Below are positions 36 to 25,573 of a stretch of DNA of 64,000 nt, piece by piece. Position 1 is the stretch's first letter, and the number at the start of each line of letters is the position of its first letter. The DNA comes from Farysia itapuensis (taxonomy: Eukaryota > Basidiomycota > Ustilaginomycetes > Ustilaginales > Ustilaginaceae): NCBI GenBank assembly GCA_023212645.1, contig JALBYC010000005.1, positions 434,001 to 498,000 of the forward strand, written 5' to 3'. Made by a program: the position numbers and the translations under genes. Under the pieces are notes generated by a model. It saw only the letters and a program-made list of their open reading frames with translations, was not told the DNA's origin and searched no databases.

Positions 36-1982
36 CTAAGTCATAGAGTACTTGGGTCCGCCTCCGCCCTCGGGGACGTCCCATCGAATGCTTTGATCTG
101 GCGTCTTGATGCTGCAAGTGTAGCAGTGAATACAGTTTTGGCTGTTGATGATGAACTTTTTGCCCAGAGCATCCTCTTGTTCTGGCGAGTCAGCTTCGAC
201 GTATTCATACACTCCAGCAGGGCAGCAACGACCCAGAGGTCCGTCGTATGTGCCCACATTTCGCTCGACGTGTCCTTTGTAGTCGCCGTCCTTGACTACC
301 AGATGCACTGGCTGGTCTTCTGCGTGGTTGGTGCCCGTTCGTGAGACCGATGTGAGAATGTCAAAGGAAAGCTTGCCGTCCGGCTTGGGATACTCGATTG
401 CCTCGCACTGTGCGGCGGGCTTGGTCTGTGCATAGTCTTCACCAGGGTGATGGAACGTCCAAGGTACACGGCCTTTGAGAATCATGGAGTCTAGACCAGA
501 GTACATGAGACCTCCCCAGAAACCAAGTGGGCCGTGGAAAGAAGGTCGCAAGTTTCGAACCTCGTACAGCTCCTTCATCACATATGAATTGTCTAGCTTC
601 TCCTTGTAGTCGGACAGCTCAAGCTGTTCCTCGGATCCAGACTCCTTGCGCTTTCCAAGTGCCTCGACGATCGATTCAGCTGCCAACATGCCAGACTTCA
701 TGGCGTTGTGCGTGCCTTTGATCTTGGGCACGTTCAAGAATCCCGCGGCACAGCCAACGAGTGCACCTCCTGGGAAAGTGAGTTTGGGAATCGATTGGTA
801 TCCGCCTTCGTTCAGAGTGCGGGCACCGTAGGCGAGGCATTCGCCGCCTTCTAAAAGGTCCTTGAAGAAAGGGTGGTGCTTCATCTTTTGGAATTCTCGG
901 AATGGGCTGAGATGCGGATTCGGGTAGTCCAGTCCAACGACTAGGCCAATCGAGACCATGTTATCTTCCATGTGATAGACCCAGCTTCCTCCGTAGGTGT
1001 CGGACTTCAAAGGCCAGCCCATGGTGTGGGTCACAAGTCCTGCCTGGTGTTTCTCGGGCTTGACTCGCCATACTTCCTTGACACCCAGACCGTACGTCTG
1101 GGGGTCGGCGTCGACGGCCTCGCGCAACTTGAACTGCTTGATCATCTTCTGCGTCATGGAGCCGTGAGCACCCTCGGCAAAAAGAGTGATGGGAGCGTGG
1201 AATTCCATACCGGCTTCGAACGAGTCCTTGGGCTTGCGCGACTTGTCGAGGCCAATCTCGTTCGTGATGACGCCCTTGATACCGGTAGGGTTTCCACTTG
1301 CGTCGTAGTCGTAGATTGCTTGGGCTGCAGCGAATCCTGGGTAGATTTCGACTCCTGCTGCTTCAGCCTGCTCTCCGAGCCAGGCAACGACACGGGACAG
1401 GGAGACGATGTAGTTGCCCTTGTTGGACATCTGGGGAGGATGCGGCATTGGGAAAGATCCCGTTTCGGTCAAAAAGCGCATCTGATCCTCGAGGGCAGGC
1501 TGATTGAGGGGAGCGTCAAGTTCCTTCCAGTTGGGTAACAGTTCCTCGAGCGCATTGACCTGAATCACAGCACCTGACAGGATGTGGTTTCCGACCTCTG
1601 GACCTTTTTCCAGCACCACGACTCGGATTTCTTCACCCTTTTCTTCTGCCAACTGCTTGATCTTGATGGCCGCGCTGAGACCGGCGGGACCGCCACCGAC
1701 AATGATGACATCAACCTCATCCGAGACTCTTTCGACAGTGTTGATGTCAAACGGCTCGCCGTTTTCGACCGGTGTAGCCCGCTTAGCAATGGTAGATGTC
1801 GAAAACGCACGAGCGGACGACGTAGAGGGAAGGCGGCCTGCAGCAGCAGCGCCGGGAAGCGAAGACAGAGCTCTGAGAGGTGCGGTACGGACGGGGACAA
1901 TAGCGGCTCGTCGCTGAGCCGTGCTTCGTAAAGCACTTGCTAGACGAGCCGGTGTGGCTTGACCAGCTCGAGTTGCAAACAT
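36..1982 (-). CDS. CIR2: Electron transfer flavoprotein-ubiquinone oxidoreductase
   Basis: A single uninterrupted 648-residue frame. It passes electrons from reduced ETF (fatty-acid and amino-acid dehydrogenases) to ubiquinone at the matrix face of the mitochondrial inner membrane. Residues 1-70 form an Arg/Ser/Ala-rich, acid-free presequence containing an RAF-STS type processing motif. The FAD dinucleotide-binding motif GGGPAG is at 96-101. The C-terminus has the ferredoxin-like 4Fe-4S cluster region (CPAGVYEY, then NCIHCYTC) and ends GGGGPKYSMT, typical of the family. Length matches the usual 600-650 residues. The start ATG at 1980-1982 is the first in frame and leads straight into the presequence. 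Named by homology to yeast CIR2 and human ETFDH. No lesion seen. Confidence 0.96.
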   Translation of the reverse strand: MFATRAGQATPARLASALRSTAQRRAAIVPVRTAPLRALSSLPGAAAAGRLPSTSSARAFSTSTIAKRATPVENGEPFDINTVERVSDEVDVIIVGGGPAGLSAAIKIKQLAEEKGEEIRVVVLEKGPEVGNHILSGAVIQVNALEELLPNWKELDAPLNQPALEDQMRFLTETGSFPMPHPPQMSNKGNYIVSLSRVVAWLGEQAEAAGVEIYPGFAAAQAIYDYDASGNPTGIKGVITNEIGLDKSRKPKDSFEAGMEFHAPITLFAEGAHGSMTQKMIKQFKLREAVDADPQTYGLGVKEVWRVKPEKHQAGLVTHTMGWPLKSDTYGGSWVYHMEDNMVSIGLVVGLDYPNPHLSPFREFQKMKHHPFFKDLLEGGECLAYGARTLNEGGYQSIPKLTFPGGALVGCAAGFLNVPKIKGTHNAMKSGMLAAESIVEALGKRKESGSEEQLELSDYKEKLDNSYVMKELYEVRNLRPSFHGPLGFWGGLMYSGLDSMILKGRVPWTFHHPGEDYAQTKPAAQCEAIEYPKPDGKLSFDILTSVSRTGTNHAEDQPVHLVVKDGDYKGHVERNVGTYDGPLGRCCPAGVYEYVEADSPEQEDALGKKFIINSQNCIHCYTCSIKTPDQSIRWDVPEGGGGPKYSMT

Positions 1983-15650: not shown

Positions 15651-17585
15651 CTACCACAGCAGTCGTCGTTCTTCGCGTTCAGCGCGAATGGTGCGCTTGT
15701 TGAGACCCCATGAGTGCTTCTCAGCCTCGTGCTGCGCATGCTTGCCAGCCTTGACGGCCTTGTCTAGGGGCGCAACGATGGACACAAATACTGGGCTGCA
15801 CTTGAACTGCTTGGCCAGTACTGTTTTGGTGTACTTGAAAGGATCCTGTTTCCGCAATCGTTGGATCTGGGCAATGTCTTCCGCGCTGATCATGTTGCCC
15901 TCAGTTCGGGCTTTCAGAGATGGGGGAAGCAAAGCCTCGTCGGAGGTCGCCAGAGGTTGCGCAGTGAGCAGAGGTTGAGGCTGGTGGGTCGTGGAGGAGG
16001 CCGATTCTGTGGAAGGAGGTGGACGGACGATAAATGTCTCGCCTGTAGGTAGACTGTGCTTGACAGCTTCGGTGCTCATCTCCAAAGGGTCTTTGGGACG
16101 TCGAGCTGGCGTGTTGCGATGAGCTGAAACAGATGTTGACAAGTGTCTTACACCAACACGAGCAGATGCAGTGGAAAAGGCTCGCTTGCCCGCAGCAGCT
16201 TCAGGTTTGATGGGCGCCGCGCCGAAGGACCATCCTTTCGGTCCTCCCCAAGTGCCCTTGACATACGAATTGTAGTATACCCATGGGAAAAAGTCCTTCT
16301 TGAGGTGATAAAACGCAGTTCGAGGTGTTCCTTGATCGATGCCAAACAACTCGCCGAATGTCTCTTTAGGCTTGCCTCCGTACTGAAATTCGGCCAGCAT
16401 TACCTTGCCATACTCTGTCAAGAGCGGGCACGACGTGTAGCCATCATAGATTGCATCCGGCTGCTTGCCCTCGAGCGTCTGACCTAGGTTTCGCACCAAT
16501 ACAGGGGCTTCGGCAGTAATGGCTGCAGCGGTCTTTGATGTGGGCAGAGAAGATGCGTCGCCGATAGACCAAACGTTGTCGTAACGCTTGTGTCTCGTTG
16601 TGCCTTGGTCAACTTCTACAAATCCGGCACCATCGGCGAGGGGACTATTCTTGATCGTAGCCAGCGGTCCCATCTTGGGAGTGACGTGGAGCAAATCGAA
16701 GCGCTTCTTCACCTGTTCCTGCCCTCCGGGTCGTGCAAACACAGCTGTGTCGCCGTTCTCGATTGCCACCAAATCGTGTTCGAACAAGCCGCCGACGCCT
16801 CGCTCTTGACGAAGCTCATTGAGTCGTTCACTGTATTTAGGGACGCCAAACATGACGGGAAGACCGGTGGCAAAGTCGATCTGGATCGCTCCATCACCAC
16901 TGTTGTTGTATAGCCCCTCCTTTTTCCAGTGATCCAACGCAAGCCACATTGCCTTTTGAGGAGCACCTGCGCATTTGATCACACCCGCAGGCTGCGTGAA
17001 GATGGCCTTGCCAGACTTGAGCTTGGAGATAGTGTCAAAGACCTTGTCGCAAGTGTCATAGCCGTAGATAGTTGAGACGAGACTTTGAGGATCCGCAAGG
17101 GCCTCAGGCAGACCCTTGATGGCGTCGTAGTTAATGCTGAGACCCGGCACGACGACCAGCTGTTCATAAGAGACCTTGCTGCCGTCTTGAAGTGTGATTG
17201 AGTTCTGCTCGGGTGAGAAAGAGTCGACGTTGGAGGCGTAATGCTTCAGGTTGACATCGAGCAGCGAAGAGAGTGGCCTGCGAAGCTCTTGCTTATCTTT
17301 GAGGCCCCCACCAACAAGTGTCCAGCCAGGCTGATAGTGGTGCCACTCTGATGCGTCGACGATCGCAACATCGTCCTTGGCAAAACCGCCAGAACGCATC
17401 AATTGGTGACTGACAGCCATGCCGGCTGAGCCACCTCCAATAATGACTACTCTGTGGTTACCAGAGCCCGAGGCGCCATGACTGGTGGGGATACTGCTGG
17501 CGACAGTTGCCAGTGACCGCGCATATTGGGGTCTTGGCAAGCATCTTGCCGCTTTGCTTAGATTCGCGCTCAGGACAGTCTTCAT
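15651..17585 (-). CDS. Sulfide:quinone oxidoreductase fused to mitoribosomal protein mL58 (MRPL20)
   Basis: One uninterrupted 644-residue frame. Residues 1-30 are a mitochondrial presequence. Residues about 44-455 are sulfide:quinone oxidoreductase: FAD motif GGGSAG at 50-55, redox Cys205 (VIKCAGAPQK) and Cys386 (TSCPLLTEYG), and an end (KGTWGGPKGW) where the enzyme normally stops. SQR oxidises sulfide and reduces ubiquinone. Residues about 505-644 match fungal mitoribosomal large-subunit protein L20/mL58: HSLPTGETFIVRPPPS, LPPSLKAR, SAEDIAQIQRLRKQDPFKYT, CSPVFVSIVAPL, then a basic tail. The junction (463-498) is acid-free and Arg/Ser-rich, with two sites resembling presequence cleavage motifs (RAF-STA, RHL-STS). 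Both products work in mitochondria, so matrix processing of a polyprotein is plausible but unproven. I found no credible frame-preserving intron at the junction. Confidence 0.9.
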   Translation of the reverse strand: MKTVLSANLSKAARCLPRPQYARSLATVASSIPTSHGASGSGNHRVVIIGGGSAGMAVSHQLMRSGGFAKDDVAIVDASEWHHYQPGWTLVGGGLKDKQELRRPLSSLLDVNLKHYASNVDSFSPEQNSITLQDGSKVSYEQLVVVPGLSINYDAIKGLPEALADPQSLVSTIYGYDTCDKVFDTISKLKSGKAIFTQPAGVIKCAGAPQKAMWLALDHWKKEGLYNNSGDGAIQIDFATGLPVMFGVPKYSERLNELRQERGVGGLFEHDLVAIENGDTAVFARPGGQEQVKKRFDLLHVTPKMGPLATIKNSPLADGAGFVEVDQGTTRHKRYDNVWSIGDASSLPTSKTAAAITAEAPVLVRNLGQTLEGKQPDAIYDGYTSCPLLTEYGKVMLAEFQYGGKPKETFGELFGIDQGTPRTAFYHLKKDFFPWVYYNSYVKGTWGGPKGWSFGAAPIKPEAAAGKRAFSTASARVGVRHLSTSVSAHRNTPARRPKDPLEMSTEAVKHSLPTGETFIVRPPPSTESASSTTHQPQPLLTAQPLATSDEALLPPSLKARTEGNMISAEDIAQIQRLRKQDPFKYTKTVLAKQFKCSPVFVSIVAPLDKAVKAGKHAQHEAEKHSWGLNKRTIRAEREERRLLW

Positions 17586-23485: not shown

Positions 23486-25573
23486 ATGTTTTCTCGTGGT
23501 CTTCGATCAGCCGCTCCTGCGACTCGACTATTGAATCAGTCGGCCCGACCCAGCGTTGCTGTAAGTTTGAAGTGGCAGTTGACCTCACTCCTCGCAAGTG
23601 CTGACAATAGATTCACTCCACAGCGATTGGCACCCCTTGGAGCACGATTCAACTCTGGAAAGGTCTCAGGTCCCGTCATCGGAATTGACCTGGGAACCAC
23701 CAACTCATGTGTTTCCGTAATGGAAGGCCAGCAGGCCCGTGTTATCGAAAACTCTGAGGGTGGACGAACTACACCCTCCGTAGTGGCTTTCACCAAGGAT
23801 GGCGAGCGTTTGGTAGGTTTGCCTGCAAAGCGTCAGGCCGTTGTAAACCCCGAGGCTACACTTTTCGCCACAAAGCGACTCATTGGCCGAAAGTTCCAGG
23901 ACAAGGAGGTTCAGAAGGATCTGAACAACGTTCCTTTCAAGATTGTTCCCCACTCCAACGGTGATGCTTGGCTTGAAGCTCGTGGCCAGAAGTACTCTCC
24001 CTCGCAGATCGGTGCATTCGTGGTTGGAAAGATGAAGGAGACCGCCGCTGGCTACCTTGGCAAGACCGTGAAGCACGCCGTCATCACAGTCCCTGCGTAC
24101 TTCAACGATTCTCAGCGACAGGCTACCAAGGATGCCGGTGCCATCGCCGGTCTTGACGTTCTTCGAGTCATTAACGAGCCGACTGCTGCTGCCTTGGCAT
24201 ACGGTCTGGACCGAAATGATTCCTCCGTCATTGCCGTTTTCGATCTGGGAGGAGGTACTTTCGATATCTCGATTTTGGAGATGCAGAAGGGCGTGTTCGA
24301 AGTCAAATCGACCAACGGTGACACACACCTTGGTGGCGAGGACTTCGACATTGTTCTCGTCGAGCATCTCGTCAACGAGTTCAAGAAGGAGTCTGGAATC
24401 GATCTCGGCAAGGACCGTATGGCCATTCAGCGAATTCGCGAAGCTGCCGAGAAGGCCAAGATTGAGCTCTCCAGCACCCAACAGACCGACATCAGCTTGC
24501 CATACATCACTGCCGACTCATCTGGACCTAAGCACATCAACACAAAGATGACAAGAGCACAGCTCGAAGGACTCGTCGGCAAGCTCGTCGACCGAACCGT
24601 CGAGCCTTGCAAGAAAGCACTATCCGACGCCGCTTGCAAGCCCTCAGACATTCAAGAAGTCATCATGGTCGGAGGCATGAGCCGAATGCCCAAGGTACTC
24701 GAGACAGTCAAGAACATCTTCAAGCGCGACCCCAGCAAGGGTGTCAACCCCGATGAGGCTGTCGCTATTGGTGCTTCCATCCAGGGAGGTGTTCTCTCTG
24801 GTCAGGTCACCGACATTCTGCTCCTCGACGTCACGCCACTGTCGCTTGGTATTCAGACACTGGGTGGTGTATTCACCCGACTCATCAACCGCAACACCAC
24901 GATCCCTACCAAGAAGAGCCAAGTCTTCTCGACTGCCGCCGATGGTCAGACTGCTGTCGACATCCAGGTCTACCAGGGTGAACGAGAACTTGTGCGAGAC
25001 AACAAGCTGCTGGGTAACTTCCAGCTTACCGGCCTCCCACCGGCAGCCAAGGGTATCCCACAAGTCGAAGTCACCTTTGACATTGACGCTGATGGCATCA
25101 TGCACGTTTCTGCCCTCGACAAGGCCACTAACAAGGATCAGTCTATGACCATCTCTGCTGGCTCTGGTCTCAGCGACTCTGAGATTGAGAAGATGGTAAA
25201 CGACGCCGAGCAGTTTGCGGAGGCAGACAAGGCTCGTCGTCTCGTCATCGAAGAGGCCAACCGCGCTCACTCCGTTTGCGGAGAGACTGCTAAGGCCATG
25301 CAAGAGTTCAGCGACCAGCTCCCAGCTGACGAGAAGGAGAAGCTCAACGTCCTTATCAAGGAGACTGAGGAGCTTGCTTCGAAAGGTCTTAACGGCGATG
25401 CCGACATCACCGCCCAGACGATCCGTGAGAAGATTGACTCCACCCAGCAGGCTTCGCTGCAGCTCTTCAAGTTGGTATACGAGAAGAAGGGCCAGCAGGG
25501 CGGTGCCGCTTCCGGCAGCGAGGGCTCCGAATCCAAGCCTGAGGGCGAGGGCGAGGGCGAGAAGAAGCAGTAA
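23486..25573 (+). CDS. SSC1: Mitochondrial Hsp70 (Ssc1)
   Basis: Exons 23486-23560 and 23624-25573. The intron (23561-23623, GTAAGT...CTGAC...CCACAG) is 63 nt, phase 0 and stop-free, so an unspliced reading gives 695 residues and the spliced one 674. The intron splits the presequence after PSVA; the spliced form reads on into [13 protein letters not shown]. Hsp70 signatures are present: [37 protein letters not shown], and substrate-binding-domain landmarks ([12 protein letters not shown]). The acidic Gly/Glu C-terminus ([11 protein letters not shown]) is typical of the mitochondrial class and is encoded by a short GAGGGC tandem repeat. It drives matrix protein import and folding. The ATG has a good context (ccgccATG). 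Confidence 0.97.

What the first reader, a model, noticed from the sequence alone, without database searches (positions are those of the whole stretch)
15651..17585. In-frame fusion of sulfide:quinone oxidoreductase with mitoribosomal protein mL58 through a presequence-like linker
The sequence shows one stop-free 644-codon frame. It encodes a complete SQR (Cys205, Cys386, FAD motif) and then a complete fungal mL58/MRPL20. The junction (residues 463-498) has no acidic residue and carries RAF-STA and RHL-STS, both fitting the R-3 presequence cleavage pattern; the ETF-QO presequence in this window has the same RAF-STS. My inference is that the ribosomal protein's old presequence was kept as a matrix-processed linker, giving two mitochondrial proteins from one mRNA at fixed ratio. 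A sulfide-oxidation enzyme and a ribosomal protein would then share one promoter.
Basis: partly seen in the sequence, partly recalled or inferred. Interest (0 to 1): 0.85.

Follow-up and report, generated by a model that had tools for sequence, protein, structure and literature searches.

The report
Two-in-one mitochondrial protein precursor in smuts
In smut fungi and some relatives one gene encodes a sulfide-oxidising enzyme joined to a mitochondrial ribosomal protein, and the joint keeps what looks like the ribosomal protein's old import-cleavage site, so the chain is probably cut into two proteins inside mitochondria.

Summary
Confirmed: one uninterrupted 644-codon minus-strand ORF (15651-17585) encodes a complete mitochondrial SQR followed by fungal mL58/MRP-L20. 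It is no assembly error: 28 of 30 database proteins found with the mL58 half carry both domains. Only one mL58 match above the Pfam cut-off was found in this genome. The joint has two R-x-[FLIM] sites. The second lies 10 residues before the conserved mL58 start in 30 of 30 fusions (29 with S/A/T next, one with M) and in 12 of 13 anchored stand-alone mL58 proteins, including Exobasidium, Meira and Tilletia. The linker is therefore best read as the old mL58 presequence. Best explanation: the precursor is imported on the SQR presequence and cut by MPP (then Icp55) into SQR and mL58, as for yeast Arg5,6 and rice SDHB-RPS14. Cutting is inferred, not shown. A second tandem precursor (Neugrin-RsfS-AsnRS), conserved in smuts, lies in the same genome. 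Against a simple history, the mL58 tree puts fusions in three places (AU p 0.091 for one clade). Not excluded: an uncut fraction ties the mitoribosome's membrane protuberance to the inner membrane through SQR.

The parts
15651..17585 (-). whole SQR-mL58 ORF, 644 codons plus stop
17511..17585 (-). residues 1-25: SQR presequence ending R23-S-L | A26-T
   Evidence: motif at R23; R-x-L/I-A-T-type N-terminal motif in 29 of 30 fusions, P0028 lacks its N-terminus; cleavage inferred
16236..17459 (-). residues 43-450: sulfide:quinone oxidoreductase domain (Cys205, Cys386)
16119..16235 (-). residues 451-489: linker between SQR and mL58
   Evidence: mostly pLDDT below 40 in the model
16173..16184 (-). 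site 1: R468-A-F-S471
   Evidence: R in 23 of 24 rows, F/M/L/I in 24 of 24
16137..16148 (-). site 2: R480-H-L-S483, in register with the presequence site of stand-alone mL58
   Evidence: R 24 of 24, F/L 24 of 24; R at -10 from the anchor in 30 of 30 fusions and 12 of 13 stand-alone proteins
15654..16139 (-). residues 483-644: mL58 as it would be released (PF12824 at 497-644)
   Evidence: start inferred

Best explanation
The gene encodes a tandem mitochondrial precursor. The SQR presequence brings the whole chain into the matrix and is removed by MPP. MPP, then Icp55, also cuts at one or both conserved R-x-F/L sites in the linker, releasing SQR to the inner membrane and mL58 with the same N-terminus as its stand-alone relatives. 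The linker is the remnant of the mL58 presequence left when the two genes joined. Shown here: the fused ORF, its conservation, and the register of linker site 2 with the presequence site of stand-alone mL58. Inferred: import as one chain, cutting, the enzymes that cut, and that this gene is the only source of mL58.
For: Fusion found in 28 of 30 homologues. Two sites conserved in a linker that otherwise varies in sequence and length (29-48 residues): R468 23 of 24, R480 24 of 24. Motif density 44.9 per 1000 residues in linkers against 1.5 in the mature bodies. Site 2 in register with stand-alone mL58 presequences, 30 of 30 and 12 of 13. No in-frame Met to start a presequence-bearing mL58 in 26 of 30. 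Two PDB chains of yeast mL58 differ by an 18-residue offset at the N-terminus (5mrc_a 177 aa, 3j6b_a 195 aa), consistent with a removed presequence there. Precedents: Arg5,6 cut internally by MPP (PMC8847149, passages); rice S14-SDHB processed by MPP, and engineered dual RGGGRRAFHT linkers cut in yeast mitochondria (PMC10450427, passages).
Against: No N-terminal, RNA or cutting data. Site 1 is missing in P0025 and changed in P0015 (RTFLS); in P0030 the residue after site 2 is M and site 1 is RTM-T. The motif is common in R/S-rich sequence, and rows are related. The own-genome search is six-frame and may miss spliced genes, and the genome may be incomplete.
Confidence: 0.82

Rival explanations
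1. The fusion stays uncut, wholly or in part: SQR, an inner-membrane enzyme, anchors the membrane protuberance of the mitoribosome, where mL58 sits, to the inner membrane.
For: Yeast MrpL20/mL58 is named among the membrane protuberance proteins and an early assembly nucleus (PMC11345376, passages). [quoted passage not shown] The fusion point is just behind that end of SQR.
Against: Two conserved presequence-type cut sites in the linker have no obvious role in a permanent tether.
Confidence: 0.08
2. mL58 is supplied separately from the same locus, by alternative splicing, an internal promoter or a non-AUG start, and the fused chain is a by-product or only an SQR with a tail.
For: Rice RPS14 sits in an SDHB gene with alternative splicing (recalled). 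Non-AUG starts that make organelle isoforms are reported for fungal 6-phosphogluconate dehydrogenase in a paper with Ustilago among its terms (PMC7214817, listing and abstract start only). Frame-keeping GT..AG pairs exist near the joint, 34 in a simple count without a control.
Against: The ORF is continuous and the homologues align along its whole length without needing an intron here. 26 of 30 fusions have no Met between residue 397 and R490; M503 is in the window's protein only, among 30.
Confidence: 0.08
3. Assembly, frame or gene-model artefact.
For: Two variant models exist: P0031 (593 aa, U. hordei) lacks an mL58 match, and P0032 reads as a short protein with a shifted first stretch (by eye).
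Against: The same fusion in 28 of 30 homologues from many sources and a single ORF in the window.
Confidence: 0.01

Closest known systems
Arg5,6 of S. cerevisiae, tandem precursor cut internally by MPP (Friedl et al. 2020, not held; seen as cited in PMC8847149 and PMC10450427, passages)
   Same: one ORF, N-terminal presequence, internal presequence-like stretch with MPP-type site between two matrix proteins
   Different: there two enzymes of one pathway and cutting shown; here an inner-membrane enzyme and a ribosomal protein, cutting not shown, two conserved sites
Rice SDHB-RPS14 polyprotein (as cited in PMC10450427, passage)
   Same: a mitoribosomal protein fused behind part of an inner-membrane, quinone-linked enzyme and processed by MPP
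   Different: the rice locus also uses alternative splicing (recalled); here no intron is needed and the whole SQR is present
S. pombe Rsm22-Cox11 and yeast Atp25 (named in PMC8847149 as composite precursors with internal signals and MPP sites in silico)
   Same: mitoribosome-related part joined to another mitochondrial protein
   Different: unrelated domains
Engineered dual S10 (RGGGRRAFHT) MPP linkers in Nif polyproteins (PMC10450427, passages)
   Same: basic R-x-F-[H/S]-T sites in double copy between two proteins
   Different: man-made; here natural and in register with a presequence

Membership tests
Tandem mitochondrial precursors cut internally by MPP | one ORF for two proteins that are separate elsewhere | tested here: met
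   stand-alone mL58 in Exobasidium, Meira, Tilletia; stand-alone SQR seen only as PDB chains such as human SQOR, outgroup fungi not checked
Tandem mitochondrial precursors cut internally by MPP | N-terminal presequence | tested here: met
   acid-free residues 1-70 and R23-S-L-A-T, by sequence only
Tandem mitochondrial precursors cut internally by MPP | internal presequence-like stretch with MPP-type site | tested here: met
   by sequence only
Tandem mitochondrial precursors cut internally by MPP | MPP-dependent cutting into two mature proteins | not testable with these tools
   needs N-terminal proteomics or import assays
Sulfide:quinone oxidoreductase, mitochondrial type | full-length match with both redox cysteines and FAD-binding GGGSAG | tested here: met
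mL58 / MRP-L20 (PF12824) | match above curated cut-off over most of the profile | tested here: met
   94 bits against 30.4, profile 4-164 of 164
Rice RPS14-in-SDHB type with alternative splicing | intron that lets one locus make two mRNAs | tested here: inconclusive
   the ORF is continuous and needs no intron; alternative splicing cannot be excluded without RNA

The most novel reading that the evidence does not exclude
Part of the fusion escapes cutting, and SQR, anchored in the inner membrane, ties mL58 and thus the membrane protuberance of assembling mitoribosomes to the membrane: a built-in tether through which sulfide-quinone metabolism and local mitochondrial translation could be coupled.
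Probability: 0.07. Interest if true: 0.85.

Novelty: new member of a known kind. Interest (0 to 1): 0.52.

Why it matters
If cutting is confirmed, this adds a natural, clade-wide polyprotein to the short list of internally cut mitochondrial precursors. It also shows how such a joint can arise: a presequence kept in frame with its cut site fixed. With the Neugrin-RsfS-AsnRS case in the same genome, it suggests that smuts have more than once joined mitoribosome-related proteins to other mitochondrial proteins this way. It would put a structural ribosomal subunit and a sulfide enzyme under one promoter, and it offers natural dual-site linkers for mitochondrial metabolic engineering.

Tried and rejected
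Weak second PF12824 match (C6:265748-266122, 24.5 bits, under the cut-off): not a second mL58 but a Neugrin-RsfS-AsnRS ORF. P0032 (214 aa) looked like a stand-alone mL58 in a smut, but its first residues read as the SQR C-terminus in a shifted frame (by eye); left out of counts. P0031 has no mL58 Pfam match; left out of counts.

Single origin of the fusion: the mL58 tree (49 rows: 24 fused, 25 single) left out the near-copies P0017-P0021 and P0023, and P0031, P0032, P0047, P0050 and P0060. It puts fusions in three groups, one being P0030 beside Meira (91/73, not a starred branch). The AU test for one clade gives p 0.091. Neither one origin nor several is shown.

Structure model: mean pLDDT 59, useful only for confirming the SQR fold and a poorly structured linker. 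I spent the last protein search on the AsnRS fusion rather than on outgroup SQR, so stand-alone SQR and gene order in Exobasidium, Meira or Tilletia were not checked. Own-genome searches for Pfam PF04442 (Cox11), PF09243 (Rsm22) and PF02410 (RsfS) did not complete. Literature: paper searches listed no title that names this fusion, and one search listed nothing; of these, 18 and 57 were aimed at it. That is no proof of absence, since only open-licence papers are held and I saw listings.

Full report
What is there. The window (G000:C45:434001-498000) holds on its minus strand one uninterrupted ORF, 15651-17585, 644 codons from ATG, with an in-frame TGA at the 15th codon upstream. Residues 43-450 are mitochondrial SQR (human SQOR 6mp5, E 7.5e-95), with Cys205 and Cys386 invariant in a 24-row alignment. 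Residues 497-644 match PF12824 over nearly the whole profile (94 bits, cut-off 30.4). Foldseek of a moderate model (mean pLDDT 59) puts human SQOR first. Residues 382-504 and 506-560 are modelled below pLDDT 50. For 382-450 that is a weakness of the model, since this part belongs to SQR; for the linker it fits disorder.

Is it real and conserved? A search with residues 463-644, among proteins of 354-1127 aa, gave 30 proteins; 28 of 30 carry both PF12824 and PF07992. Named ones include Ustilago, Sporisorium, Moesziomyces, Testicularia, Melanopsichium, Thecaphora frezii and Tilletiaria anomala. The other two are P0028, a 466-aa model whose aligned part includes the SQR C-terminus, and P0031, a U. 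hordei model without an mL58 match. Below, '30 fusions' means the window's protein and 29 of these 30 hits, P0031 left out. Many are close relatives, so counts are not independent events. In the window's own genome PF12824 gives one match above cut-off, and the fusion protein finds only itself. The six-frame search may miss spliced genes, and the genome may be incomplete.

The joint. Between residue 450 and the mL58 anchor lie 29-48 residues, with no acidic residue in 7 of 30 and one in 23 of 30; that one lies before site 1. 28 of 30 carry at least two R-x-[FLYIM]-[SAHT]-[STA] motifs and 30 of 30 at least one: 58 in all against a mean of 3.3 (maximum 11) in 2000 composition shuffles. The density is 44.9 per 1000 residues in linkers against 1.5 in the mature bodies. 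After six near-copies were left out, R468 is conserved in 23 of 24 and R480 in 24 of 24, with F/M/L/I at 470 and F/L at 482 in 24 of 24, while the residue between R and F and the spacer vary. Exceptions: P0025 has lost site 1, P0015 has RTFLS at site 1, and P0030 has RTM-T at site 1 and RTF-M at site 2.

Where the linker comes from. A profile search with the mL58 half, among shorter proteins, found 29 proteins (only the 7996 best candidates were scored). Among them are annotated stand-alone mL58 proteins of Exobasidium rhododendri, Meira miltonrushii and Tilletia species, each starting with Met and a presequence-like stretch. Of the 29, 13 (P0033-P0045) hold the anchor R[ND][TSIL]P[AV]RR and count as single proteins; P0032 was set aside and the others lack the anchor. 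In 12 of the 13 an R-x-[FLIM]-[S/T] site lies exactly 10 residues before the anchor (the thirteenth, P0044, has K). The same holds in 30 of 30 fusions, with S/A/T after the hydrophobic residue in 29 and M in one. So site 2 is in register with the old presequence site, kept in frame.

How it most likely works. MPP cuts with the arginine at position -2 (R-x|F), and Icp55 then removes F/L/Y before S/A, giving the -3R pattern (PMC8847149, passages). Three sites of this precursor (R23-S-L, R468-A-F, R480-H-L) have this form. A fourth match, R103-P-L inside SQR, is also found by the pattern. The ETF-QO presequence in the window has the form too, but the Hsp70 presequence-like N-terminus does not. 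Expected products are SQR from residue 26 to 469, a spacer of about 12 residues, and mL58 from 483. In 26 of 30 fusions no Met lies between residue 397 and R490, so an ordinary internal start would not give mL58 a presequence there; P0008, P0012, P0025 and P0030 do have a Met. A double copy of RGGGRRAFHT gave the strongest signal among engineered internal MPP sites in yeast mitochondria, and a version ending FST was also made (PMC10450427, passages). The natural linker resembles it. Nothing here shows cutting.

The tether rival. Yeast mL58 is named among the membrane protuberance proteins of the mitoribosome and in an early assembly nucleus (PMC11345376, passages). [quoted passage not shown] An uncut fraction would therefore place the ribosome at the membrane. 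Conserved cut sites argue against this as the main state; partial cutting is not excluded.

History. The mL58 tree (49 rows) puts fusions in three places: the main smut group with Thecaphora (21 rows, support 85/89), Tilletiaria with P0028, and P0030 near Meira. Starred branches force at least two changes, yet the AU test does not reject one clade (p 0.091). One old fusion with later splits, or repeated joining of neighbouring genes, both remain open.

A second case. The weak PF12824 match elsewhere in the genome is a 1043-codon ORF (L004:1616-4747) with Neugrin, RsfS (last third of the profile) and Asn-type tRNA synthetase domains. A search with its joint found 16 proteins; 14 of 16 carry Neugrin, RsfS and tRNA-synt_2 together (exceptions P0073 and P0077), including UMAG_04607 of Mycosarcoma maydis and PFL1_01350 of Pseudozyma flocculosa. 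Of the window genome's own row and 15 hits that have a joint (P0077 has none), 16 of 16 have at least one R-x-[FLY]-[SAT] site between RsfS and AsnRS: 18 sites in 1185 joint residues against 30 in 14192 elsewhere. In P0061 and P0072 the site is not in the common alignment column. So tandem precursors with presequence-type joints are not limited to SQR-mL58 in these fungi.

Novelty. As a mechanism this is a new member of the kind represented by Arg5,6, with Atp25, Etp1, Rsm22-Cox11, SPAC22A12.08c and rice RPS14 named as further composite precursors (PMC8847149, passages; Friedl et al. 2020 itself is not held). Paper searches, aimed at the fusion, listed no title that names it.

Noticed in passing
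L004:1616-4747 (+), = G000:C6:265115-268246, outside the window: A second tandem mitochondrial ORF, Neugrin-RsfS-AsnRS (1043 codons), conserved in smuts (14 of 16 hits carry the three domains) with an R-x-[FLY]-[SAT] site at the RsfS-AsnRS joint in 16 of 16 rows that have a joint.
   Followed up: partly
L004:1616-4747, residues 266-449: Neugrin and RsfS lie together in one protein, with only the last third of the RsfS profile matched behind Neugrin; whether the first part of RsfS is degenerate or split by Neugrin was not tested.
   Followed up: no
window 36-1982 (-), 23486-25573 (+), 15651-17585 (-): ETF-QO, an Hsp70 with a presequence-like N-terminus, and SQR-mL58 lie within 26 kb: two quinone-linked flavoenzymes in one neighbourhood.
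   Followed up: no
   Followed up: partly
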